Positions 21,201 through 46,971 of a stretch of 46,971 nt of DNA are shown here, one piece after another. The notes beneath the pieces were generated by a model. That model was not told the DNA's origin. It saw only the letters and a program-made list of their open reading frames with translations, and searched no databases. The stretch is from Spinellus fusiger (lineage: Eukaryota; Mucoromycota; Mucoromycetes; Mucorales; Phycomycetaceae), in the NCBI GenBank assembly GCA_025094145.1, contig JALLLS010000142.1:1-46971 (forward strand). The letters run 5' to 3'. Each line of letters starts with the position of its first letter. The first letter of the stretch is position 1. The position numbers and the translations under genes are program-made.

Positions 21201-21273
21201 TTTGGTGATGGATGATTTTCAAATTTGGATAGACTTACAATTTTGGTTTTAAAAAAGTGTTGCTTAGCAGAAT

Positions 21274-22025
21274 GTTGTTCCCTAATTTGGACAGAATAGT
21301 TCTAAGCCTGGAGGTATGTTCACAGAGTGGAATAGCTAGTGGTTCTTGGTTTGGACTGAAGCCCATGTAGATCAAAAAAGAAGAATAAAAGAGAACATAG
21401 AAGATAGTCTTTTATTCATTGAATTCACTTAATTATTTATACTAAATTCTACAGTGTACAATTGCACATATATGTCTTGCCTTTATATTCACTGTGAAGA
21501 GAACATGTTAAGCCAAGACAATATATTGCATTAGCATTTATCTTATTAATTATATTATATTATCTGTGTGTATCTACACAGGATAATGTGTCTTCCAAAA
21601 AGGGAAGACATGTGCAGCCAATAGTATTACTCTATTTGATAGCACAGTGTCTAGCATAGACACTATTGTTGCCACTATACTAAATGCTATGATTCCATTG
21701 GCCAGCACACTTTTCCTTATTGGACTCACATGGATTACTTCTTTTAGGTTTATTAAATAATCAAACAAACAGTATGTCTTGGATGAAGTCACACTCACCC
21801 TGAGTAGACTGAAGACAAGATGTACTTAGTCAATTGTATCATATGTAAATTAGTATAAATAAGCAACTATTTTGAATGAATAAAAGTCATCTTCTATCCT
21901 CTCTTTATCTATTCTTCTTTGATCTATTTGGGCTTCAGTCCAGACCTTGTTATCCTCAGTTTCCTCCTATTGCTGTCTCTACTTTCAGGCTTAGTATTAT
22001 GTTATTCAAATTGGTAACTGACTCT
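21274..22025 (-). mobile_element. TB1: tRNA-adjacent element with inverted LTR-like ends
   Basis: A roughly 0.75-kb non-coding element beginning TGTTGTTCCCTAATTTGGAC and ending near GGTAAC (22013-22018). The outer 160 bp at each end are imperfect inverted copies of each other. Both contain GGACTGAAGCCCA, AGTATAAATAA and AATAAA reading outward. The middle holds two hairpins (GTGTCTTCC...GGAAGACAT and CTGTGT...ACACAG). The right end lies 14 bp upstream of a tRNA-His 5' fragment. Related copies are TB2 and TB3. It could be a solo LTR, a DIRS-like remnant or a foldback element. Confidence 0.7.
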
Positions 22026-22032
22026 ATCAACT

Positions 22033-22048
22033 GCCGTGATAGTATAGG
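22033..22048 (+). tRNA. tRNA-His gene, first 16 nt only (interrupted)
   Basis: GCCGTGATAGTATAGG matches the 5' end of eukaryotic tRNA-His genes (acceptor strand, then T8-A9 and the D-stem/A-box TAGTATAG). The sequence stops being tRNA-like after base 15 or 16, where the 3' end of LINE LA1 begins (TTAAAGAT). I did not find the rest of the gene on the far side of LA1. It is called from memory of tRNA-His consensus and is short, so it needs a covariance or BLAST check. Confidence 0.65.
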
Positions 22049-22287
22049 TTAAAGATTTTTTATTAAAGGAGATATATGCATTTGCTTAATGAAGCCTTAC
22101 TGCACTCCTTGCACTAATTGAAATAAACAAAAAAGTTCTACAGGACAAAAGAACAAAAAAAGACAGGCAAGAGAGAGAAACTAAGACTACTAGACTTTAA
22201 GGCTGTCCCTGCTCTCCACTCTGTAGCTGTGTTAAAAGATTGTAACAGTGAGAGGGAGGAGGCCAGAGAAGCAGAACAAAAAGCTGT

Positions 22288-25200
22288 TCATTCATGCACC
22301 TGGTGCACCTGATCATGCCAAAGCATGCCTGGACTTGAGTGGGGACTAAACTCACTGTCAGGGTTGCAAAGCTGGTCTATATGCCAGAGAATTGTATGTA
22401 GAGGCACCCAGAAAGAAGGACAGGAAGAAGATTTCTTAGAAAGACAGTTGATGGTGTGATCCAATGGATGGCAGTGTTGTGGTGCTGGTGGCAGTTGATC
22501 CCATAGGTCCCTTGGAATTGCTGGACACTCTGCAAGATGTCTTCTGGAGGTGTGCTCTGCTGGACTGCACTGACATGGATGTGGCTTACCAGGAAGCCAT
22601 CCCATTCTCCAACATATGAGCCTGCTTCTGTCATGTCTGGTTGCTGGCAAGAAGAGGACTGGATCAATGCCAAGTGTTGGCCTGCATGCCTTGATGAGCA
22701 CCTTGTCTGTCACTTGCAGGTACTGGTCAAGGAGCTGTTGGTGTTGTTGTTGGAAGTATTGCCTAAGCTGTGCAGATGATTCTGGCAACACTCCTGGAAG
22801 AGAGGCAAAGAGATGATTCTTGGTGAGTGGTTCAAGTAGTGGCACTCCTGGACTGTTCAACAGCAGAGACAAAAGACATTGGGGTGGAAGTGAGGCAGCA
22901 CGTAGACAGAACCTTGTCTTGAGAGAGTCTGAGCAGAAACTCATGCTGGGCAGGTCACAGATATGCTTCAACACCTGAGTGGAGCTAGTGGGGTGGCCAC
23001 CTATGATCATTCTTAGGCACCTGTCTTGTATCTTCTCCAGAGCTTTGATATCTTTCTTCAAAAGAACAGTGATTGCCAGACCATACTCAAACTTTGGCCT
23101 AATGAAGGTCTTGTATAGTCTTGAGCTGAGGAGCAAAGAGAAACCAGAATGTGAGGCACCAACAGCATGCAGTGTGGACATGGCAAACATTGTGCCTTGC
23201 TTTCTGTGTGAGATAATCCCAGAGGAGTTGATTCCATTGTAGACAAAGGGCATGTCAAGGTAAATGAACTCATTGGCTGCTGGAAGGGCCTCTCCATATA
23301 TCTTGAACTGGTTTGCTTGGGAAACAGAAGGGGGAAGGACCACTGCACACTTGGAAGGACTCCATCTAAAGCCAACTGAAACAGAGTAGTACTCTGCCAA
23401 ACGCAGCATGTGCTGAACCTCTCCAACCTTACCAAAGACAGCAATATCATCAGCAAAGAAGAGTGAGTTGATTCCTGTAGGCTTATCCATAGTGGTGCTA
23501 CTGTTGTCTGTTAGTGATTCTTCATACTCTGCCAAAGATGATGGTGAGCTAGACTGCACATGTGTTGTTGTTGTTGCTGTTGCCACACTTCTGAAAAGAC
23601 ATGCAAGTGGGTTAATGTAGATTGAATAAAGGTGGGGGCTGAGAACTGAGCCTTGCAGTACACCAGTTACTGGAGAGAACAAAGAGGACACATAGTTGTT
23701 CAGGATGACTGACACATGGACATCATCAAACAAGTGGACAAGCAAAGCAAGCAGTGGTGGCGGTGTGTTTCTCTTGTGCAGGGCATCCCAGATCAGGTTC
23801 CTGTCTACAGTGTCGTAGGCTGCCTTGATGTCCAAGTAGGCTACCACAGGATAGTGGTGGTGTCTCTGATAATATCTCTTCATCAGGTTGTGTAAACACA
23901 GAGCCTGGTCCAGTGCACCTCGTCTTGGTCTGAATCCACCCTGAGCAACATCAAGTGGGGGAGAGTACTTGTGCAGGTCTGGTGCTAGACATACCTCAAA
24001 CAGCTTTCTGAGAACAGAAGTCAATGAGATTGGCCTGTAGTTGGCTGGATCACTTGGGTCACCCTTTTTGAAGATGGGGAACACCTGTGCTTGACGCCAT
24101 GGGAGAGGAACATAGGACCACTGCCAACACATGGTGAACAGACCAGAAAGAATGGGGACAATGGTGGTGCTGAGTGGCTTTAGCATTTCTGCTCTCAGGT
24201 GGTCTACTCCTGGTGCTTTCCTATTTGGCAGCAGCTTCATACAGAACTTGACAACAGGTTGTGAGAATGGTGTTGTGGCTGCTGGGAAGGGATGCTGATG
24301 CTGCTGTGCTGTTACTGGTGGTCTAAGTGATGTTAATAGTGAGCCTCTATAAACACTCTCAAGGTGTTGGCTCATCACTTCTGCTGCTGCTGCTGGCCCA
24401 TCTGGGTGTTGGAATGTCTGCTGTGGCTGTCTTCTTCTACGAATCTGCTTCACCTTGGATGTAGCCTTTGCATAGTCTCTCTCCATGCTCTTGCAAAACT
24501 CTTGCCAGTGTCTTCTCTTGGCTCTTTGCACTTCACACCTAAAGGCCCTCTGTGCATCCAGGTGCCTCTGCCACCAACAAACCTTGTCCAGGCCTCTTGC
24601 CCTTTTCCAGCTCTTGAAGCTGTGCTCCCTCTTCTCAACTGCCACCTGCAGAGCCTCACTCCAGAACTTCTGCCAATGTGCAGGTCTATGTGTCTTGCTT
24701 CCAACAGAGCTGTCCAAAGCAGAGTAGATGCAGCTGCTGAGCTGATCTGTCAGGCCATCAATGTCAGGACAGACACCAGGAGGATTGCTCACTGTAGATG
24801 TAATTAGTTGACATAGTTGAGAGGAGAGACTATCAAACTTGTCTCTGTATAGATCAGCAACATCTGGCTCCACAAGGCGTGAGAGGTTCCACATTCTTCT
24901 GATGGGTGGTGGTGTGAGAGGAGCTGTAGACATGTCATGATCAAATGTCATACTGAGCAGCCTATGGTCTGAACCAAGAGAGAGATCACCATACACCATC
25001 ATGAATGTGTTGTCAAAGAGACAGCTGGACACAAACAGATCCACAATGCTACTCATCTCTTGTTCTTGTTGGAAAGAGTGGTAGGTTGCTTGACCAAAGG
25101 CATGCATGCTGTTCTGGACATACAGCTGACGTTCTTCTAGCCATTCCAGTAGGGCTGTACCTCTAGGATTTGTGTCATGGTCCCAAGAACTGCACCAAGT

Positions 25201-25644
25201 CTTGCATTCAGATCCCCACAGATGATTGTGTCCTCTGTCAAAGGAATGGAGTTGAGCACTGCAAAAGTGTCTTAGGGAAAGGGAGGGGGGAAGGTAGAGA
25301 CATATAATTCTCAGTGAACCAATTTGGACACCAAGGGCATAGGGGGAGGGCATAGGGATGTGGGTAACATGGTAGGGACAGGAGGGAGAAACAAGAGCAC
25401 AGATACCAAGTGAGCCATGGTAGCTGTTCTCAACAGGCTTGCCATAGGTGTGGAACTGTGTCCAGGAAGTAGGGAGGTGGGAGGGAGAGAGGAGCCAGGT
25501 TTCTGTGATAAAGAGCATAGTAAAGGAGTGTGAGTGTGTCATAATGTCATATACCATAGACTGTTGAAGTCCATTGGCATTCCATAGGCCTATAGAGACT
25601 CTATTCATATTGGTGTTTGTTGTTGGAGGACTCAGACATGGCAA
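22288..25644 (-). CDS. LA1 ORF2: endonuclease and reverse transcriptase
   Basis: A 1,118-codon open frame. The N-terminal APE endonuclease has GLWNANGLQQS and FITETWLLS. The RT (about residues 400-800) has VFPIFKKGDPSDPANYRPIS, AYLDIKAAYDTVD, GVLQGSVLSPHLYSIYIN and SLFFADDIAVF, all catalytic Asp present. The C-terminus has CRPTLGIDP and a CxC...H...H...C cluster (PCQCSPAEHTSRRHLAEC). The frame is open, but between about 25270 and 25175 it is read out of phase through a -2 and a -1 deletion. In the other phase the same DNA encodes TIICGDLNARLG, the lost endonuclease core. The RT may be intact; the endonuclease probably is not. The start could be the internal ATG of MNRVSIGLW. Confidence 0.88.
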   Translation of the reverse strand: MPCLSPPTTNTNMNRVSIGLWNANGLQQSMVYDIMTHSHSFTMLFITETWLLSPSHLPTSWTQFHTYGKPVENSYHGSLGICALVSPSCPYHVTHIPMPSPYALGVQIGSLRIICLYLPPSLSLRHFCSAQLHSFDRGHNHLWGSECKTWCSSWDHDTNPRGTALLEWLEERQLYVQNSMHAFGQATYHSFQQEQEMSSIVDLFVSSCLFDNTFMMVYGDLSLGSDHRLLSMTFDHDMSTAPLTPPPIRRMWNLSRLVEPDVADLYRDKFDSLSSQLCQLITSTVSNPPGVCPDIDGLTDQLSSCIYSALDSSVGSKTHRPAHWQKFWSEALQVAVEKREHSFKSWKRARGLDKVCWWQRHLDAQRAFRCEVQRAKRRHWQEFCKSMERDYAKATSKVKQIRRRRQPQQTFQHPDGPAAAAEVMSQHLESVYRGSLLTSLRPPVTAQQHQHPFPAATTPFSQPVVKFCMKLLPNRKAPGVDHLRAEMLKPLSTTIVPILSGLFTMCWQWSYVPLPWRQAQVFPIFKKGDPSDPANYRPISLTSVLRKLFEVCLAPDLHKYSPPLDVAQGGFRPRRGALDQALCLHNLMKRYYQRHHHYPVVAYLDIKAAYDTVDRNLIWDALHKRNTPPPLLALLVHLFDDVHVSVILNNYVSSLFSPVTGVLQGSVLSPHLYSIYINPLACLFRSVATATTTTHVQSSSPSSLAEYEESLTDNSSTTMDKPTGINSLFFADDIAVFGKVGEVQHMLRLAEYYSVSVGFRWSPSKCAVVLPPSVSQANQFKIYGEALPAANEFIYLDMPFVYNGINSSGIISHRKQGTMFAMSTLHAVGASHSGFSLLLSSRLYKTFIRPKFEYGLAITVLLKKDIKALEKIQDRCLRMIIGGHPTSSTQVLKHICDLPSMSFCSDSLKTRFCLRAASLPPQCLLSLLLNSPGVPLLEPLTKNHLFASLPGVLPESSAQLRQYFQQQHQQLLDQYLQVTDKVLIKACRPTLGIDPVLFLPATRHDRSRLICWRMGWLPGKPHPCQCSPAEHTSRRHLAECPAIPRDLWDQLPPAPQHCHPLDHTINCLSKKSSSCPSFWVPLHTILWHIDQLCNPDSEFSPHSSPGMLWHDQVHQVHE

Positions 25645-26544
25645 CAGAGCTTCTTCTGCTCACTTGGAAGGCATTTGCTGGGTCATCTCTGTCAATGTAT
25701 CCCTTGTTGGTTGGCTTGGGGGGCATCTGCTCTTCACTGATCCAGCCATTGGCTACAAAAGCAGCAGCAACAGAAAAAGCAATGTGGGGGCGCATGTACT
25801 GGATAGCCTGCATGCATCTGTTCTCTTGGAGTCTGGCTGCCTCAATGCACATCTGCTCAACATTGAAGGTGGCATATTTTGGGTCTGCCAGATGCTTGGG
25901 GTCCAGAGGGTCAAAGTTCTTGTAGATATCTACCTTGGCCTTATTCAAGACTGCAGTAAGAGACTCAACATACTGGACATGGACCAAAAGACCAAGAACA
26001 GAATGGGCAGGGAAACACACATCCAGGATTCTACCTGTTTCCAGGCCAAGGGTTCTCAGGAGGCGTCTTGCCTCTGGGCAGTTCATGCATCTGCCTCTTG
26101 GAATGTACACATAAGTGTAACCTTTAGGACCTTCTTGGATGATGAAGGCACGTGCAGCAGATTCCACTCTCCTAGTTGAAGGTGCTGGGCGGGTCTTTTT
26201 GGCTACAGTAGCCCATGTGGAGTCCTTGGCTGTCTTCTCAGCCTGTTGGTGGTTCTTTGGTGCCTGTGTCACCTCTTGTATCACAGGAGTTGCCTTATTA
26301 GTAAGGCAGCAAGCTTTGCCTCAAGGGCTGCCACAGTCTCTCTCAGCTGCTTGTTTTCTTCCATAATGGCCTCAAAGGCCTCAAGTCTCTGCTTCTGATG
26401 GGTGTGCTCAGAAGCCATTTGAGCAAAGCTCTGTTGGAGTGACGTCACTGCCGAGATAAGTTGAGCTTCGGTGGTGGTGGTGGTGGCATTAGCCAAAAGG
26501 TGTTGTTGTCCTGCTGGAGAAGAGAACATAGTGGATCTGGTCAA
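25601..26544 (-). pseudogene. LA1 ORF1: coiled-coil RNA-binding protein (frameshifted)
   Basis: The first part (26544-26281) encodes a coiled coil with heptads (EENKQLRETVAALEAKLAAL). The second part (26284-25601) encodes TWATVAKKTRP and the conserved C-terminal domain YTYVYIPRGRCMNCPEAR and DVCFPAHSVLGLLVHVQY. The two frames meet at GTGA (26281-26284). In LA2 the same region is one frame, so a deletion near 26285 is the likeliest explanation, not a genuine extra ORF. The C-terminus overlaps ORF2 by 44 nt. Upstream codons are open and an ATG lies at about 26529. Confidence 0.85.
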
Positions 26545-26717
26545 GTTTGAGAGCTGGAGGTCTGAAACTTTTGTAGAAGATAGTCGGGAGATGGGGGAAG
26601 ATGGATTGATGATGGATGCAGATGGATGTAGCTTTTTGGAGACGGATGGACGTTTTTGAATTTTTGGATTGAACTTATGAATTTTAAAAAAAAGTCATCT
26701 TTAGTAGAAAGAGAAGT

Positions 26718-26789
26718 GTTTCCATGGTCTAGTGGTATGACACTTGCTTTACACGCAATTGCTCTCCGGTTCGATCCCGGATGGAAGCA
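26718..26789 (+). tRNA. tRNA-Val (anticodon UAC)
   Basis: A 72-nt cloverleaf. The acceptor stem GTTTCCA/TGGAAGC has one G-T pair and discriminator A. The D arm is GTCTAGTGGTATGAC. The anticodon arm CTTGC-TTTACAC-GCAAT gives anticodon TAC, with a mismatch at the outermost pair. The T arm is TCCGG-TTCGATC-CCGGA. There is no intron. A-box and B-box (GGTTCGATCCC) sequences are present. The single stem mismatch and the LINE 28 bp upstream are the only oddities. Confidence 0.93.
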
Positions 26790-26985
26790 ATTTGATTATT
26801 AATTTCCATTTATAGGAAATGATCTTATTTTTGAGGTACAATCATAATAAAAAGAAATATATATTACACTATTTTCACTTATTATTGTTGCATTAATAAA
26901 TTAAAAGATGGCATATAAGTTAGATGTAACAAATGTGACATAAATGTTTTATTGTTAAAGAGGCTTCTCTTGTAAGCAAACCTCA
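26790..26985. other. AT-rich spacer, no feature recognised
   Basis: AT-rich DNA between tRNA-Val and a decayed transposase. A TTGATTATTAATTTCC stretch follows the tRNA but I see no T run long enough to call a Pol III terminator with confidence. Confidence 0.4.
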
Positions 26986-29474: not shown

Positions 29475-29524
29475 AATACAAATCATTTGAAAAAGCAAAA
29501 AATATATGGCTTCTTAAAAAGTAT

Positions 29525-29606
29525 CGTCGACAGCAGGATTTGAACCTACGCAGGCAGAGCCTATGTGATTTCTAATCACACTCCTTAACCACTCGGACAT
29601 GTCGAC
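29525..29606 (-). tRNA. tRNA-Ser (anticodon AGA)
   Basis: An 82-nt class II tRNA. The acceptor GTCGACA/TGTCGAC is perfect, with discriminator G. The D arm contains CCGAGTGGTTAAGG. The anticodon arm GTGTGA-TTAGAAA-TCACAT gives AGA. A long variable arm (AGGCTCTGCCT) precedes the T arm GTAGG-TTCAAAT-CCTGC. There is no intron. Its 5' side at 29607 onward faces the TB2 element, whose conserved GGTTACC begins 15-16 bp away. Confidence 0.95.
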
Positions 29607-29619
29607 ATGTCATTAATTT

Positions 29620-38715: not shown

Positions 38716-38911
38716 TTTTTTTTGTAGGTGGAGGCCAAAACCTCACATTTTATTTGCTTGCACATCACAGTGAGTGGTGCACACAAAAAACCCCATTTTA
38801 GCAAGCTAAAAGGGAAGATAATATATAGATAGTTGAACTAAAGAAAAAATAAAATAAAGGGATAATACAATATAAGGGATAAGCTATACAAAGAAGAAAA
38901 AAAGAAACATT

Positions 38912-41900
38912 CTAAATGTCTGCTTCAGCTATAAACACAAGAATCAACTTCTTGGCCATAGACTCAGCACAAACCACAGTGAAAGGAATATTGTCAAACA
39001 CTAGTTGCCAGTGACACCTCCAGAGTGCCAAGAGAAGGCCTGATACCACTTGATATGGCTCCAGAGAAAGGAAAACAGAGGTAGGAAATTTGAGACTGTA
39101 AATGGCCTTGAAAATGTCCAATAGAGTAGGACTCCTGCCAAAGAAATGCTCCCAGACTAAATTCCAAGTAGCTAACTTGACAGGGCAAGCAAAAAGAAAG
39201 TGAGCACCTGCATCTTCAGACACTTTACAGATTGGACAAAGAGCAGTGGGAAAAGAGTCAGGGATAAGCTGATGTAGCAGCAAGTGACAAGAAAGTTTTG
39301 AGTGCAGAGCTCTATACCAGACATTTTGAGCAGAGTGGTGGATATTCATCTGCCAGAAAAATCTCCAATTGCAATTAGTGAGAGGTGGTCTAAAGACAGG
39401 TAAGACAGGTACTGAGGTAGCAATCTGTCTATAGAGACAAGGGCCAAGCTTGCTCAAGGGGCAATCCTCAGTATCTACACTGGAAATGAAAGGGCTCAAG
39501 TCCAAACAACCCACTCCTTGAGGTTCTGAAGAAGGATGCAGACCAGGAAGACAGTTGAAGACAAAGAATCCATGTAGTAGAAGATGACCAAGTAGGTGGG
39601 CACAACAGAAACAAGATACAAGACAAGAAGAAACTGTTACCTCAGAGGGTATACAATGCCAAATGCATTGAAGCACTTCATCAAAGACAAAGGCATCCAC
39701 TGTACTCAGGTTACTGTAACCCTTTGAAGGCTTAAATTGATTGTCAGGTGAAGACCAAACAGCAGACAAAGGAAGAGAGAGACAAGTAGCAGATGACACT
39801 CTCTGACTTACTGGATGCTGTGGCAACTGGTCAAAGGCATTTAGTAGTGAACCCAAAGGGTGTAAACCAGATGCAAGTGCATGGGAGCATAGGGTTGGAA
39901 AAAAGAAAGGCAGTAATGGATCAGGCACATTACACATACTTTGAAGAACAAAAGCAGTGTAAGGAGAAACAAAAGAATAAGGATTTCCACCAAAGAGAGG
40001 TCAAATCCACCACACTTCAGAGCCCATTGGTGTAGTTGAGGATCCATAATACCCAGTCTACCTGCTTGCTTGGGTGCAGTTAACTTATCAAATTTGATTG
40101 GTGGAAACATGTTATACATAAGGAACTGTTGACCACAAGAGTGCAACCGTTTCAATAATTTAGCATGCAGAGGAGTAACTCAAAGGACATGCCACAAGGT
40201 AGAGAAGATGAGCATATTAAGCACAGTGGCTCTTCCTAATACTGACAAAGAGCGTTGAGAGTGAATATGACAAGCTGCCTTGACTTTTTCCAGAAGCTGG
40301 TGGCAGAAAAACAAGCATTGGTCTGTAGAAATGGCAAGAGGAAAACCCAGGTATATCACAGGAGTACTAGATCTACAGTCATGCCAGTCAACAATCTGAT
40401 GGCAACTTAGTGGATCAGTCCACCCAGGGAGCAAGGCCCCAGAAAGAGAAAAAGCAGTTGTCTTGGAGAAATTAATTTTTGCATTGGATGCTCTGCTATA
40501 GGTATCCAACCACTTGTACAGGCAGTCTAGATCAGATGACTGTTGAAGAAAGACTAAGGCATCATCAGCATATGCAAGTACTTTCACTGGTGAAGGAAGA
40601 GGAAGAGGCACAAAAGTAGCAGAACTAGTGAAGACATATCCTTTAAGATCAGTGTCTTGTAACAGAGAGCAAAGAAGTGGTTCAAAAGCCAGGTTAAATA
40701 GAACTGGTGACAGTGGATCCCCTTGACAAAGACCATGTCTTTGGTTTACAGGTGAAGAGATGAAACCATTGACATTGACCCTGATGGCTGTACCAAAGAA
40801 CAAACCAATCAGACAAGTGACAAGAGTCTCTGGGAAACCAAAACGATGAAGAACAGTAGAAAGATAGGTAGGATGAACTCTATCATATGCTTTCTCTTGG
40901 TCCAATAACAAGCCAATGGCAGTTGAACCAGATCAAACAGCATCATCCATCACCAACCAAGTCAATAAACCATTATCTGCAATAAAGCAACCATGTAAAA
41001 ACCCAGTCTGGAATTGGTTCACTAGTGTCTGAGCAGCAGGAACAATATAACTATTGACAAGTCTAGTGAAGACTTTTGCATCTGTGTTGATAAGCAAAAT
41101 GGGCCTCCAGTTAGCCAACAAAGAAAGATCACCTCTCTTTGGAAGAAGAGTCATACATGTGTCCTGCCAACTGAGAGGGAAAGTACCTAGAGTAAGAGCA
41201 TCATTGTAGATTTTCACAACCATAGTGGCATATTCAGGGTGAGCAAAAACAAGCCTCAGAATCTTATAGGGTATGCCATCCATGCCTGGACTACTACGTT
41301 GTGGGGAGTAGAAGACACCTTCCAGAATCTCTTCCAGAGTGATATCAGCTACCAACTGTTTAGCAGTATTAGCAGATAGAATGCAGGAACTAGGAATATA
41401 AGATAAGAGCTGCTCAGTGGCAGAAGCATCTACAGTCTCAGCAGAGTATAGTTTTGAATAAAAACATTGAGCTGCAGCTGTCATTTCCTGAGGTTTGGAG
41501 CAAAGAGCACCAGATACTGGGTGTCTCAGGGCAGGGATGGTGGTCTGGGCCTGTCTAGTAGTCATTATTTTTTCAAGAAGCTGGCAGAGCATTCACCTTT
41601 TTCCCTCCAAATACAACCAGCTCAAAGGGTAGCCACATAGGCAATCTCATTCTGCAAAGCAGCAATCTGGATTTCCACAGAGGAAAGAAGCAGAGACAAA
41701 GAAGCAGTAAAGCAATATTCTCTCAAAATTTGGTTGCATTGACTTTGTAATTTACATAGCTGTCATTGACGCCATGCTGCCTGTTTCTTTCCAAATTTCC
41801 TAGCTACATTCCAAACTTCTAACTTGGCTCTTTCCCACTGATCTTGTACAGAAAGATCTGACATGGTAGGAAGAAGGTGAGAAAGTGAGTCCATGAGTAG

Positions 41901-42683
41901 GTCACAAAAGTCTTTTTTCTGAGCTAAAAGTGGATTGGCATGCCACAAGCCTTTACCACAAGGTATAGCAGTAAGTGATAAAGTAACTGACAAAAGAGCA
42001 TGATCAGTCCACTCTGAGTTAATAAAGACTATGGTAGCAGAGTGAGTTGTAGGAGCTAAGGCAGTTGATGCAAAGATAGCATCAATACTGGATGCAACAT
42101 TTCTTCTACAAAAAGTGGGTGGTGGGTGGAGAGAAGAACAATGGTGACAATCAACAAAGTACCTATCCACAAAAGATGTCCACTGTAGTAGTGATTGTGA
42201 GTGAGTAGTAGGTAAAGAGTAGTTAAAATCTCCAGCAATAAGGATGCATGGGAGAGAAGTAGTATAGTCCATAAAGGACAGAAGCAAGAGAAGATTGTTG
42301 TAGAAATGTCTTTGTTCAGAAAGGTGTGTGGGTGCATAGAGTACCAACAGCTCAAATGATTCAAAGGCATTGTTGCAATGAGTAATTGTAGCAGAGAGAA
42401 CTCTACAATCAATAGTTGAGTAATTAGGAGAAAGAAGAAGATCAGGAGAGAGAGAAATCAATCCACAATGAGAAGACCAGAGGCTATGAGAAGCTTGGAA
42501 TTCCATGTGAAAGGTGTGTTGAAGGTCAGGAGAAGCATGTGTTTCTTGCAAAGCAAGTAGTTGAAAAGATTGTGTCCATAGAAATTGAATAAATTGTTGT
42601 TGTTTTTGTGTGTTATTTACCTTGGCCAGGCCTCTGCAATTGAGAGAGCCTAATTGAATATCATATGGTTGTACTCTATTCAT
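38912..42683 (-). pseudogene. LB2 ORF2: endonuclease and reverse transcriptase (broken)
   Basis: ATG at 42683 overlaps the ORF1 stop as ATGA. The endonuclease (to 41763) looks intact with LGSLNCRGL, LLALQETHA, ILIAGDFNYSL, SIDAIFAS and WTDHALLSV. The RT (41592-40180) has SPGMDGIPYKILR, MTLLPKRGDLSLLANWRPI, LLDQEKAYDRVHP, GLCQGDPLSPVLFNLAFEPL and VLAYADDALVF, so both catalytic sites are present. The C-terminus (39937-38912) has a CCHC cluster CPICKVSEDAGAHFLFAC. Defects are a frameshift near 41600-41760, TGA near 40931, TGA at 40180-40182 and a frameshift near 39940. Each looks recent. Confidence 0.88.
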
Positions 42684-43969
42684 TGATATCTAACAGGTTT
42701 TTGATGATTGCGGGGTGGATAATGAGAAAGAACAACAGGTGAAACAGGTAAAATGGATTGATTTGGAGTACTCTGTGAATTCTCAGAGAGATCTAAACTG
42801 CCACATACAGGATTATTCACAAGCATGGGCTCTTCTTCAAACTCAATAACTGCTACACAAGAAGAAGAATCCAAAGGGTCTGCAACACTTATAGCAGTAG
42901 AAGGGGTGGCAACACTACCATCAATAACAGGATCAGCAGTGGATGTAGTAGAAGAAGTAGAAACAGTAACAGCATCATGAGTAGCAGAAGTAGCAGGAGC
43001 ATCAGGAACATTTGGAACAACAGGAGTACTAACAGAAATGCTAGTATCAGCTGTAACAGTGGTATCAACTACAACTGTAGGTTTGTTCTTCTGAATTTTA
43101 GGCTTTTTATGGCCTAAGTCCTCTCTATTCTGAGGACATTGGGCTGCAACATGACCTTCAGAATTACATCCAAAGCACAGACAACAAGGACAAATTGGAC
43201 AGTCTTCATGCAAGTGATCTGTTGTGTGGCAGTATTGACAGAAACTAGGCATATCTTGCCAAGTAGAAAAAAAGGTACTGGTGCTGTCAAACCACTCCAT
43301 CTGGTGGCTTAGTGGCAAGAAGGAAGAAGCAGAAGCAGAAGAAGTAGAAAAGGAAATAAAAGCATATCCTCAGCCCATGAACCAGCCGCCATGTTCCTCA
43401 ACATGCAGACCAAGTTTAAGAATCTGCCCATAGGGCCCAAGAGACTTTTCTAGTCCCAAACAAACATCATCAGCATCCTCAATAGGAAGATTCTTAAGTG
43501 CTAGCTTTGTTACTTTGCAGTTGCCAGGCAAAGCAGGGTATGCTTTCAGAGTGACCCCATCAACTATAAGGCCCTCTCTATTACAGATCTCTAAGCAGTG
43601 ATCCTCTGACTTGAGGATGACTTCTACTAGAGTCTGAGATCCTTCTTTGTGGGTGGTTATTCCAAGACCCACTCCCACTGGAAAAACTTTTCTAGCCTCT
43701 CTATAGAAGGCTGCTGATGTCACCAACACCAAGGTGACATTAAAAAACACACAGGGGTGTTTGCTGGAAGCCTGTTTCCAGACTCAAGGGGTACGTATTG
43801 AGGTGCCATGAGTGGTGTTGGGGGCTGACAAAGGCACAGATTTGTACTTGGCTGCTGCTGAGTACAAACAAAAAGGTATAGCATTATGCTGTTGTTTTGG
43901 TCCATGAGGGGTGTTGTGTGGGCTATTGGCACCACTTGGCAAGTCCGGATTTTTAGCAGGAAGAGCCAT
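42680..43969 (-). pseudogene. LB2 ORF1: RRM plus CCHC RNA-binding protein
   Basis: A 430-codon frame without frameshift, interrupted by two TGA codons (43784-43786 and 43370-43372). The head is Pro/Ser-rich (ANSPHNTPHGP). The RRM-like domain has LALKNLP (RNP2-like) and, across the second TGA, GYAFISF (RNP1, expected to be preceded by Arg or Lys). The zinc knuckles CQYCHTTDHLHEDC and CFGCNSEGHVAAQC both fit CX2CX4HX4C. A long Ser/Thr/Val-rich tail follows. Both TGA positions are shared with LB1. It would bind LINE RNA. Confidence 0.87.
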
Positions 43970-44268: not shown

Positions 44269-44284
44269 GGACTTATAGCTCAGT
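44269..44284 (+). tRNA. tRNA gene 5' fragment, first 16 nt (interrupted)
   Basis: GGACTTATAGCTCAGT has a 7-nt acceptor strand followed by TAGCTCAGT, a perfect A-box/D-stem start. The next tRNA-type bases would be TGG, but LINE LA3's 3' end (TTAAAGAT) follows. The isotype cannot be told. It has the same cut position as the tRNA-His fragment at 22033-22048. Confidence 0.7.
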
Positions 44285-46971
44285 TTAAAGATTATTTTTA
44301 TTAGGGGTAATAATGCAAGTGCTTAATGAAGCTTACTGCTACCCAAAGACAAAGAAAAAAATACAAAAAGTTCAAAAGGACAAAAGAACAAAAAAGACAG
44401 GCAAAGAAAAGGAAACTAAGACTACTGGGCCTTTTGGCTGTTCCTGCTCTCCACTCTGCAGCTGCTCTAAACATTGTGGCAGTGAGAGGGAGGAAGACAG
44501 AGAACCAGACCAAAAAGCTGTTCAATCATGAATTGCTGTTGCTTGTATACTCCACACCAAGCCAGGACTGGGGTCAGAACTATAATCTCCCTCAGGATTG
44601 CACAGCTGGTCAAAATGCCATAGGATTGTCAGAAGAGGGACCCAAAGGGAAGGACAGGCAGAAGAAGAGAGAGGAAGACAAGAGATTGCATGGTCAACTG
44701 GGTGACTTAGTGGTGGTGCAGGTGGTAGTGATGACCAAAGATGTGCTGGGACAAATGGGCAGATTCTTAGGTGTCTTCTGGATGTATGTTCAGCATCACT
44801 GCCTTGACATGGCCTAGGCTTTCCAGGGAGCCACCCCATTCTCCAATGAACAAGTCTGCTTCTGTCATGCCTAGCAGCAGGAAGGTATAGAATAGGGTCC
44901 ACCCCAATGGTTGGTCTACAGGCCTTGATCAGAACCTGGTCTGTTGCTGCTATGAATCTGTCAAAATGCAGTTGACATTGTGTTTCTAGATATGCCTTCA
45001 GTTTAGCATCAGTGTTGAGAGGCTCTTCAGGCAGAGATCTGTACAGTGGGTTATTTTGTAGGGGCAACAGTGGAGACTGGCCTTGTTGTTGATCTGACAG
45101 GAGAGTAAGGAGACAGTGGGATGGAAGAGTTCTGGCATAAATACAGAATCTTGTTTGGAGTGTGTCCATTTGAAACTGCATGCTTTGTAAGTTACTGATG
45201 TGTTTCAGTACCACTGTAGAGCTGGAAGGATGACCTCCTAGGATCATTCTCAGACACCTGTCTTGGATCTTTTCTACTGCCTTGACATCCTTCTTCTTCA
45301 ATGTAGATATGGCCAGGCCATATTCAAACTTGGGCCTTATGAAGGTCTTGTAGAGACATGTGCTCAGAAGCAGAGAAAAACCAGAACAAGAGGCACCAAC
45401 TGCATGCAACGTTGAAATGGCTAACAGAGCACCTGGCTGTCTGTGCACTAAGATGGAGGCTGGGTTTATACCATGGGCTCTAAAGGGCATGCCTAGGTAG
45501 ATAAATTCATTGATAAGTGGCACTACCTCTCCATACAAAGTGTAGGCTGTTCTGATTAGTGGGTCTTGTTGGACTATTGCACACTTTGATGGACTCCATC
45601 TGAAACCCAGAGACAGTGAGTGTTGTTCTGCTACTTGCAGCATGCTTTGGACTTCCTGGGGACTACCAATGTTGGCTATGTCATCTGCAAAGAAGAGAGA
45701 GTTGATGACTGTTGGTCTTGGTTCTGGTAGAGCATTGGATGCATCTAGTAAGTAGTTGTACTCTCTCAGTGAAGATGGTGAAGTAGATGAGACAACTGTT
45801 GGAGAACGTGCAAAAGGTATAGACCTGAAGGTAGCTGGAAGAGAGTTAATGTATATGGAATACAAGTGAGGACTTAGCCCTGATCCCTGAAGCACACCAG
45901 TCACAGGGACAAAAGAAGGAGAGACATAGTTGCTCAGTAGAACACTGATGGAGACCTCATCAAACATGTTGACTAGAAGTGCCAGGAAAGCAGGTGGGGT
46001 GTTTCTCTTTTTGAGAGCATTCCATATCACTATATGGTCAACTGTGTCATAAGCTGCCTTGATGTCCAGATAGGCCACTACTGGGTACTTGTGATGCTGT
46101 TTGTAGTGCTGGCTGATGATACTGTGAAGGCACAGGGCCTGGTCAAGAGCACCTCTTCTTGGTCTAAAACTACCTTGGGCCACGTCCAGAGGCAGGGAGA
46201 ACTTATGCAACATGGGTAAAAGACACATTTCAAACAGCTTCCTCACTACTGAGGTAAAAGAAATAGGCCTATAGTTGGCAGGATTGTCTGGACTACCCTT
46301 CTTATAGATAGGAAAGACCTGTGCTTGGTGCCATGGTGAGGGGACATAGGCCCATTGCCAGCAAACTGTAAACAAGTTAGACAGAACAGGTGCAATCACA
46401 AACTTGATGGACTTGATCATCTCTGCTCTGATGTGGTCTGAACCTGGTGCTTTTTGAGATGGCAGAAAGGCAATCCAGTGTAATACATCTGCTGAAGTCA
46501 AAGGTGTATTGTTAGCAGAGAAAGGTAGCTGTGGTAATGGTGGTGCTGGTGCAGGTTGTCTTACTTCAGGCAGAATACCTCCACTGTAGACAGTCTTCAA
46601 GTGTCTTCCCATTGCTGTGGCAGCTGCTTCTGGTCCATCAGGGTGCTGGTATGTGGTCTGCTTCTGCCTACGTTGTCTCAGCTGCTTGATCTTTGAGGTT
46701 GTCTTTGCAAAGTCTCTCTCCATTGCCTGACAGAAGGCATGCCATGCTCTTCTTTTGGCAGCCTGCACTTCACTTCTAAATGATGCTACTGCTGCTTGGT
46801 GCTTCTCCCACCAGTAGACTTTGTCAAGGCCAACAGCACGTCTCCATCTTCTGTAGTGTCTATCTCTCAGGTCAGCTACCTCCTGTAGTGATGTAGACCA
46901 AAAGGCCTTCCAGTGTGTGGGTCTTGGACGTTTGCTACCTACAGAGAGATCAAGTGCCTTGTATACATTAT
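44285..46971 (-). mobile_element. LINE LA3 (family A), truncated by the window edge
   Basis: The 3' UTR (44285-44521) matches LA1's 3' UTR and ends AATAAAAATAATCTTTAA with no long A tail, joined to a tRNA fragment. The 3' part of ORF2 is open to the right edge. The copy is the least damaged LA in RT sequence. Confidence 0.9.
44522..46971 (-). CDS. LA3 ORF2, C-terminal 816 codons (partial)
   Basis: An open frame runs from the window edge to TGA at 44522-44524. The visible part starts after the endonuclease. Motifs are WHQAQVFPIYKKGSPDNPAN, YRPISF, AYLDIKAAYDTVD (catalytic Asp), GVLQGSGLSPHLYSIYIN, SLFFADDIA (catalytic Asps), and PKFEYGLAISTLKKKDVKAV. The C-terminus has CRPTIGVDPILYLPAARHD and the HTSRRHL zinc-type cluster. 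No stop or frameshift is seen in this part, so the RT could be functional if the N-terminus outside the window is intact. Confidence 0.9.
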   Translation of the reverse strand, partial: NVYKALDLSVGSKRPRPTHWKAFWSTSLQEVADLRDRHYRRWRRAVGLDKVYWWEKHQAAVASFRSEVQAAKRRAWHAFCQAMERDFAKTTSKIKQLRQRRQKQTTYQHPDGPEAAATAMGRHLKTVYSGGILPEVRQPAPAPPLPQLPFSANNTPLTSADVLHWIAFLPSQKAPGSDHIRAEMIKSIKFVIAPVLSNLFTVCWQWAYVPSPWHQAQVFPIYKKGSPDNPANYRPISFTSVVRKLFEMCLLPMLHKFSLPLDVAQGSFRPRRGALDQALCLHSIISQHYKQHHKYPVVAYLDIKAAYDTVDHIVIWNALKKRNTPPAFLALLVNMFDEVSISVLLSNYVSPSFVPVTGVLQGSGLSPHLYSIYINSLPATFRSIPFARSPTVVSSTSPSSLREYNYLLDASNALPEPRPTVINSLFFADDIANIGSPQEVQSMLQVAEQHSLSLGFRWSPSKCAIVQQDPLIRTAYTLYGEVVPLINEFIYLGMPFRAHGINPASILVHRQPGALLAISTLHAVGASCSGFSLLLSTCLYKTFIRPKFEYGLAISTLKKKDVKAVEKIQDRCLRMILGGHPSSSTVVLKHISNLQSMQFQMDTLQTRFCIYARTLPSHCLLTLLSDQQQGQSPLLPLQNNPLYRSLPEEPLNTDAKLKAYLETQCQLHFDRFIAATDQVLIKACRPTIGVDPILYLPAARHDRSRLVHWRMGWLPGKPRPCQGSDAEHTSRRHLRICPFVPAHLWSSLPPAPPLSHPVDHAISCLPLSSSACPSLWVPLLTILWHFDQLCNPEGDYSSDPSPGLVWSIQATAIHD

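What the first reader, a model, noticed from the sequence alone, without database searches (positions are those of the whole stretch)
22033..22060. LINE family A 3' ends join tRNA genes at the same nucleotide (15/16, in the A box)
Seen: LA1's 3' end follows GCCGTGATAGTATAGG (tRNA-His 5' part) and LA3's 3' end at 44285 follows GGACTTATAGCTCAGT (a different tRNA 5' part). Both tRNAs stop after base 15 or 16 and both LINEs begin TTAAAGAT. Known: some non-LTR elements target tRNA genes (Dictyostelium TRE elements), but these insert at a distance from the gene, not in the A box. Inference: this family's endonuclease nicks the non-template strand of tRNA genes at the D-loop and primes there. Targeting multi-copy tRNA genes is a plausible survival strategy, although each insertion destroys the gene's promoter.
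Basis: partly seen in the sequence, partly recalled or inferred. Interest (0 to 1): 0.86.

Follow-up and report, generated by a model that had tools for sequence, protein, structure and literature searches.

The report
LINEs that rebuild target tRNA genes
In a fungal genome (likely a mucoromycete), LINE retrotransposons sit inside many different tRNA genes at one exact base, and in most copies of the best-studied subfamily a complete tRNA gene directly follows the other end, so each insertion likely rebuilds the gene it enters and would leave it open for the next LINE.

Summary
48 of 66 junctions score as tRNA starts above a 1% control level; 63 of 66 follow an A; LA1/LA2/LA5 never follow CA (0 of 36), LA3/LA4 nearly always do (29 of 30). 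The inference that each insertion destroys the gene is not supported. Of 30 LA1-type 5' ends, 22 abut a complete, divergent tRNA gene, 3 a tRNA stub plus the next LINE, 5 an LTR-like start; of 33 LA3/LA4-type ends read, 4, 11 and 18. Stub and gene are the same tRNA in 9 of 17 pairs (0 of 20000 permutations). A 14-bp target duplication explains this: the gene is likely rebuilt and hit again, giving stacks of LINEs separated by stubs (L124). Eight of 17 pairs are mismatched, perhaps through exchange between LINEs; 9 of 66 junctions show no tRNA. Closest in behaviour: Dictyostelium TRE/NLTR and NeSL-type elements. My open-library searches found no APE-type LINE that cuts the A box of many tRNAs and restores them.

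The parts
22033..22046 (+). tRNA-His 5' stub (bases 1-14), left of the LINE
   Evidence: sequence; identical to the first 14 bases of the complete tRNA-His beside copy L009
22047..26716 (-). LINE LA1, full length; 3' end (GGTTAAAG on + strand) at 22047, 5' end at about 26716
   Evidence: L009-L013 and other copies align over its whole length or nearly so; junctions
22288..25644 (-). LA1 ORF2 (reverse transcriptase; the endonuclease GD-N motif is not in frame in this copy)
25601..26284 (-). LA1 ORF1-like frame, no Pfam match
26717..26790 (+). complete tRNA-Val(TAC) gene directly at the LINE's 5' end, divergently oriented; not the same tRNA as the His stub
   Evidence: ARAGORN, Rfam RF00005 54.8 bits
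21056..21272 (-). 5' end of an older LINE of the LA3/LA4 kind, cut off by the start of an LTR-like element
   Evidence: (C49:21056-21272), sequence
21273..22020 (.). LTR-like element ends between the older LINE and the tRNA-His stub; inner borders not mapped
   Evidence: sequence; similar ends upstream of other tRNA genes
44269..44282 (+). tRNA-Cys 5' stub (bases 1-14), left of the LINE
   Evidence: sequence; same start as tRNA genes L101-L104, of which the one on C126 is called Cys
44283..46971 (-). LINE LA3, 3' part; 3' end (GTTTAAAG on + strand) at 44283; the 5' part lies beyond the contig end
44522..46768 (-). LA3 ORF2 part with reverse transcriptase domain
29524..29607 (-). tRNA-Ser gene with an LTR-like end about 17 bp upstream (context, no LINE seen)

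Best explanation
These are LINE retrotransposons whose 3' ends mostly sit right after base 14 of many different tRNA genes and whose 5' ends, in most copies of the best-studied subfamily, run straight into a complete tRNA gene, so the insertion likely duplicates tRNA bases 1-14 and would thereby rebuild the gene it enters. Likely working (inferred): the element's APE-type endonuclease nicks the tRNA-sense strand 3' of [T/C]A14 in the A box; the free 3' end primes reverse transcription from the LINE RNA's tail-less 3' end (...CUUUAA[C/U/A]C); the opposite strand is cut about 14 bp away, at tRNA base 1. Repair leaves a 14-nt stub on the LINE's 3' side and the whole gene, with both internal promoter boxes, on its 5' side. 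The rebuilt gene can be hit again, so LINEs pile up between the old copy and the tRNA gene, separated by stubs. Choice of tRNA genes as such (through A box DNA or bound Pol III factors) and choice of the exact base by the endonuclease appear to be two separate layers.
For: 3' side: 63 of 66 junctions follow an A (31 TA, 29 CA, 3 AA); 48 of 66 score as tRNA starts. Subfamily rule: CA in 0 of 36 LA1/LA2/LA5 and 29 of 30 LA3/LA4 junctions. 5' side: of 30 LA1-type 5' ends, 22 abut a complete tRNA gene of ten amino-acid types (Ala, Asn, Asp, Gln, Glu, Gly, His, Pro, Thr, Val by ARAGORN), 3 a stub plus the next LINE (L015, L034, L058), 5 an LTR-like start. Same tRNA on both sides in 9 of 17 pairs, against 26 of 272 wrong pairings; 0 of 20000 permutations reached the observed sum. 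In three 5'-truncated copies with matching sides (L014, L044, second LINE of L124) the shared stretch starts at tRNA base 1. L009, with both reading frames open, has identical His sides over 15 bases. The LA1-type cut after A9 in TTTAGCTCA tRNAs (L015, L017) separates base choice from gene choice. Stack L124: LINE 5' end, Thr stub, LA3, LTR-like element, Thr stub, truncated LINE, complete tRNA-Thr. Of 60 tRNA genes chosen by Rfam score alone, 18 carry a LINE-like 5' end in the last 18 bp upstream, against 51 of 1200 control windows. APE and RT domains: PF14529 43.6 bits (cut-off 27.4) and PF00078 86.0 bits in L009 ORF2.
Against: 8 of 17 left/right pairs are not the same tRNA, the window's own LA1 (His stub, Val gene) among them. 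18 of 66 left flanks miss the control threshold; 9 of these show no tRNA by eye, some keeping CTCA or TTCA alone (L037, L042, L043, L144, L145). Of 33 LA3/LA4-type 5' ends that I could read among the 39 rows, only 4 abut a complete tRNA gene directly, 11 a stub plus the next LINE and 18 an LTR-like start. Whether the rebuilt tRNA genes are transcribed, the nick itself and the order of steps were not tested. Only one genome could be examined. The signature behind the 18 of 60 count is a loose expression written after seeing the ends.
Confidence: 0.85

Rival explanations
1. The LINE endonuclease is only weakly specific ([T/C]A before a purine) and inserts broadly; selection removed the other insertions and left those at tRNA genes, which do no harm.
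For: Nine of 66 junctions show no tRNA and several keep only CTCA or TTCA, so the base motif alone can be used outside tRNA genes.
Against: A 4-base motif occurs some hundred thousand times in 38 Mb (my estimate, not a call), much of it where insertion should be tolerated; yet 25 of 30 LA1-type 5' ends touch a tRNA gene or stub directly.
Confidence: 0.08
2. The complete tRNA at the LINE's 5' end is a cDNA copy made by template jumping from LINE RNA to a tRNA molecule, not a rebuilt target.
For: [quoted passage not shown] mechanism recalled).
Against: The tRNA lies divergent to the LINE, with its own 5' end at the LINE's 5' end; a jump would put the tRNA's 3' end there, in the LINE's orientation. 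One such gene is called with an intron (L048 tRNA-Asn), and 9 of 17 match the stub at the other side.
Confidence: 0.02
3. The two ends are joined to different cut tRNA genes during insertion (the cDNA's far end is joined to another broken tRNA gene), which would explain the mismatched pairs.
For: 8 of 17 pairs differ, including two 5'-truncated copies (L016, L019). Dada DNA transposons in tRNA genes show mixed flanks too, for which one-ended transposition was proposed (PMC3706591 passages).
Against: Recombination or conversion between closely similar LINEs explains it as well. Stack C1 reads Glu stub, LA5, likely Gly stub, truncated LA1, Glu gene: the outer two agree and the inner stub differs, as a conversion tract would leave. 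Assembly joins across 4.7-kb repeats cannot be excluded. A comparison of flanks showed shared repeats only and decided nothing.
Confidence: 0.25

Closest known systems
Dictyostelid TRE5/TRE3 and NLTR-A/NLTR-B non-LTR elements
   Same: APE-type LINE-like elements tied to many tRNA genes; D. purpureum NLTR-A lies 2-6 bp upstream of the mature tRNA (PMC5006619 section 9; PMC5911963 passages), close to where LINE 5' ends lie here.
   Different: TREs lie 40-54 bp upstream or 40-150 bp downstream (PMC5911963 passage) and end in poly(A) (PMC5006619 passage); NLTR elements carry RNase H. Here the 3' junction is inside the gene at base 14, with no poly(A) tail and no RNase H match. What I read of those papers reports no tRNA stub and no target duplication; NLTR-A's far end was not described there.
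NeSL-type elements specific for one tRNA gene (NeSL-1_TV tRNA-Pro, LIN15_SM tRNA-Arg, LIN25_SM tRNA-Glu)
   Same: non-LTR retrotransposons specific for tRNA genes (PMC4640811 passages).
   Different: restriction-like endonuclease lineage (recalled for NeSL itself; the paper's passages say it of the related Utopia) and one tRNA type each; here an N-terminal APE-type endonuclease and at least ten tRNA types.
Dada DNA transposons
   Same: insert inside tRNA genes, many families in the A box (bases 8-13), with mixed flanks in some copies (PMC3706591 and PMC8869645 passages).
   Different: DDE transposase and 6-7 bp duplications; their tRNA genes are spoken of as disrupted. Here a LINE, a 14 bp duplication and a rebuilt gene.
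Ty3-like LTR elements of Mucorales
   Same: Rhizopus oryzae Ty3/gypsy elements often co-localise with tRNA genes (PMC2699053 passage); LTR-like ends lie just upstream of tRNA genes here too.
   Different: other class and other position (upstream, outside the gene).

Membership tests
APE-type non-LTR retrotransposon (LINE) | reverse transcriptase domain | tested here: met
   PF00078 over the cut-off in LA1, LA3, L009 ORF2 and one L124 frame
APE-type non-LTR retrotransposon (LINE) | N-terminal apurinic-like endonuclease | tested here: met
   PF14529 43.6 bits in L009 ORF2 and 55.2 in an L124 frame, cut-off 27.4; under the cut-off in the window's own LA1 (24.3)
APE-type non-LTR retrotransposon (LINE) | no long terminal repeats; 5' truncation of some copies | tested here: met
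   truncated copies L014, L016, L019, L028 against full-length ones; terminal repeats were not sought by a separate test
L1 clade | position in a reverse transcriptase tree | not tested
   no tree made; PDB matches include both human LINE-1 and R2 proteins at similar scores; a Mucoromycotina paper reports LINE/L1 elements (PMC7928374 passage)
TRE elements (Dictyostelium) | insertion outside the tRNA gene at 40-54 bp upstream or 40-150 bp downstream | tested here: not met
   3' junction after base 14 inside the gene, 5' end at base 1
TRE elements (Dictyostelium) | poly(A) tail | tested here: not met
   nearly all 3' ends read G[G/A/T]TTAAAG on the complementary strand, with no run of T before it
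NLTR-A/NLTR-B | RNase H domain after the RT | tested here: not met
   no RNase H match in L009 ORF2 (Pfam)
NeSL-type tRNA-specific elements | restriction-like endonuclease instead of APE | tested here: not met
   APE-type domain present; absence of a restriction-like domain was not shown separately
Dada transposons | DDE transposase and 6-7 bp duplication | tested here: not met
   RT and APE domains; shared stretch of about 14 bp in matching pairs

The most novel reading that the evidence does not exclude
A whole LINE clade lives on self-healing insertion: one nick rule, [T/C]A14 in the A box, serves many tRNA families, the 14-bp duplication rebuilds the gene each time, and every new copy lands head-to-head with a live Pol III gene, pushing older copies away. 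The tRNA gene is a renewable port whose open chromatin drives the newest LINE, and the row of 14-nt stubs is a readable record of past insertions.
Probability: 0.35. Interest if true: 0.78.

Novelty: new variant of a known kind. Interest (0 to 1): 0.66.

Why it matters
The tRNA-directed mobile elements that I found in print either keep their distance from the gene or insert into one tRNA type. Here the cut lies in the internal promoter itself, yet the likely stagger between the two cuts equals the distance to the gene's first base, so the gene would be rebuilt. That offers a simple reason why the A box can be a safe target, suggests that gene choice and base choice can be separated, and gives stub-by-stub records of insertion order.

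Tried and rejected
Chance or artefact: rejected by the 66-junction count and the left/right pairing test. tRNA fragment as part of the LINE: rejected, since it changes with the locus. Template jumping to tRNA molecules: rejected by orientation and by an intron. Left out of the 66: the second LINE junction of L124 (C30:10324; Thr stub) and the partial matches, and the stubs seen later. Pattern search for the tRNA behind the stub GCATTCAATAGTTTAG: none with 2 mismatches; a looser pattern found two related places, so the name Gly for that stub is likely, not shown. Relatives with DNA in the viral collection: none. A batch ARAGORN run missed genes and was replaced by single linear runs. Flank comparison for traces of exchange gave only shared repeats. 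Organism name: not found.

'Newest copy sits next to the gene': the 22 LINEs beside a complete tRNA are on average 96.0% identical to LA1 over the 5' end (LA1 itself included at 100) against 89.5% for the 8 others (Mann-Whitney p 0.0035, with identities copied); identity to one copy is only a proxy for age.

Print: the statement that I found no such LINE rests on the searches and 78 of the open library only (one search returned nothing); Repbase and most subscription papers were not seen. I saw passages of PMC5006619 (plus the whole of its section 9), PMC3706591, PMC4640811, PMC2699053, PMC4133162, PMC7928374, PMC5911963 and PMC8869645; PMC13174262 only as search listing and start of abstract.

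Full report
What was checked. The two reported junctions are real. The window is a whole contig, C49, of a 38.08-Mb, 197-contig assembly. Of 132 proteins found for the LA1 ORF2 (120 listed, most unnamed; best 52% identity), the named ones are from Rhizopus, Mucor, Phycomyces, Umbelopsis and other mucoromycetes at 34-51% identity, plus two fish at 25-28% with far lower scores. The host is therefore likely a mucoromycete fungus; the species was not identified.

3' junctions. A search with the LA1 3' end gave 40 matches (40 of 52 candidates scored); LA3's 3' end added four. Two further subfamilies, met as neighbours in stacks, gave 14 matches from the 3' end on, of which 13 were used, and 9. Together 66 junctions were read. 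The LINE ends are mostly the same to the base: GGTTAAAG (LA1, LA4, LA5), GATTAAAG (LA2), GTTTAAAG (LA3), with no poly(A); a few differ (L030, L041, L125, L140, L144, L152, L153). The base before is A in 63 of 66, itself preceded by T in 31, C in 29 and A in 3. Against 1980 control windows from the same flanks, 48 of 66 left flanks exceed the 99th percentile for likeness to a tRNA start: LA1 19 of 21, LA2 2 of 6, LA3 12 of 17, LA4 9 of 13, LA5 6 of 9. The reference set was small (33 distinct starts, plus one). Of the 18 misses, 9 look like stubs by eye, such as GGGGATGTAGCTCA in L135 and L146, and 9 do not; L037, L042 and L043 keep CTCA, L144 and L145 keep TTCA.

Where the cut lies. Copy L027 has G at the junction although its own tRNA has A15; the best-matching tRNAs of L025, L026, L033 and L040 have A15 too. 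Base 15 is thus most simply supplied by the LINE, and the cut follows A14. LA1, LA2 and LA5 never follow CA (0 of 36), LA3 and LA4 nearly always do (29 of 30). In tRNAs reading TTTAGCTCA the LA1 type cuts after TTTA, at base 9 (L015, L017), while LA3 and LA4 cut the same kinds of gene after CTCA (L046, L136). The exact base appears to be set by local sequence, five bases apart in the same kinds of gene.

5' junctions. A search with the LA1 5' end gave 30 places. Reading outward: 22 abut a complete tRNA gene, called by ARAGORN, starting within a few bases of the LINE end (mostly AGAAAGAGAAGT); 3 run into a tRNA stub followed by another LINE 3' end (L015, L034, L058); 5 run into the start of an LTR-like element (L025, L026, L060, L061, L062). 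Three 5'-truncated copies also abut complete tRNAs (L014 Pro, L016 Glu, L019 Ala); L028 does not. For the LA3/LA4-like 5' end a search gave 39 rows, 33 of which I could read: 4 abut a complete tRNA (L076, L079, L101, L103), 11 a stub plus the next LINE, and 18 an LTR-like start. In one search, which held 19 of these 33 and one LA5-type end, none of 20 abuts a complete tRNA directly. Of 7 LA5-type 5' ends I read 5: 4 run into a stub plus LINE, 1 into an LTR-like start.

Target duplication. Left stub against right tRNA for 17 copies with both sides in hand: 9 match (score 7 or more) against 26 of 272 wrong pairings, and no permutation of 20000 reached the observed sum. One of the 17, L125, may pair ends of different elements, and the two ends of L044 were joined by reading L129 and L093 with a short gap unchecked. 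In truncated, matching copies (L014, L044, second LINE of L124) the shared stretch starts at tRNA base 1. Eight pairs differ, LA1 among them. In stack C1 the order is Glu stub, LA5, likely Gly stub, truncated LA1, Glu gene, as if an inner tract had been converted; L124 by contrast keeps Thr throughout.

Decay of stubs. In nine matching pairs, 6 of 8 differences are CpG transitions, although CpG makes up 14 of 137 sites; in 19 other stubs compared with their best-matching tRNA, 8 of 18 differences are, on 26 of 295 sites. LINE bodies show the same: compared with L009, 11-33% of CpG positions have C>T or G>A changes against 0.4-1.9% change elsewhere, over nine copies, and the L009 element has a CpG observed/expected of 0.106. 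This is what methylated DNA would show; methylation itself was not tested.

How full the tRNA genes are. Of 63 tRNA genes scored (of 1446 first-look candidates) I took 60 with 250 bp upstream (three were left out). 45 of 60 share a repeat of at least 40 bp, ending within 35 bp of base 1, with a tRNA of different sequence; 18 of 60 show a LINE-like 5' end in the last 18 bp against 51 of 1200 control windows. These are the top-scoring genes, not a random sample.

Mechanism. Shown by sequence: the repeated 3' joint, the complete divergent tRNA gene at many 5' ends, bases 1-14 on both sides in matching pairs, stacks. Inferred: nick on the tRNA-sense strand, target-primed reverse transcription, second cut about 14 bp away, continued transcription of the rebuilt gene. 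The protein fits: APE-type endonuclease and reverse transcriptase domains. What draws the element to tRNA genes (A box DNA or Pol III factors) is open.

Noticed in passing
L060-L062, L155-L174, upstream parts of L063-L122; window 21273-22020 and around 29625: LTR-like elements (starting TG, ending ..GGGAACGACA, ..ATTGGTAACYRACA or ..CACGTGTCA) end about 5-20 bp upstream of many tRNA genes, often inside the last 10-15 bases of a LINE 5' end, a Ty3-like position; in L123, and on C111 (L155, L092), the LINE end bases AGAA lie on both sides of the element. That they are LTR elements was not tested.
   Followed up: partly
L064, L065, L073, L090, L091, L094, L096, L097, L099: Another repeat, ending CCAAACATCCC or similar, stops at or within a base of tRNA base 1 in several genes; class unknown.
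   Followed up: no
L009 element and nine copies: Strong CpG depletion (observed/expected 0.106) and CpG-biased change, suggesting cytosine methylation of these LINEs.
   Followed up: yes
L011 (C17:15805-24805) and L050 (C17:32020-32250): The same LINE end, tRNA-Asp gene and downstream sequence appear in inverted orientation on one contig, a likely duplication.
   Followed up: no
window about 38725-43318: A second LINE family (RT domain over the cut-off, endonuclease matches under it) whose 3' flank shows no tRNA to the eye and lies in LTR-like sequence.
   Followed up: no
L157, L159, L162, L166, L171: Further 3' ends behind tRNA stubs (GCTCAGATTAAAC..., GCTCAGTTTAAAGATTATTTATTT...), so the clade looks larger than the five subfamilies counted.
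   Followed up: no
L048: The tRNA-Asn gene beside a LINE 5' end is called with an intron of 10 bases.
   Followed up: no
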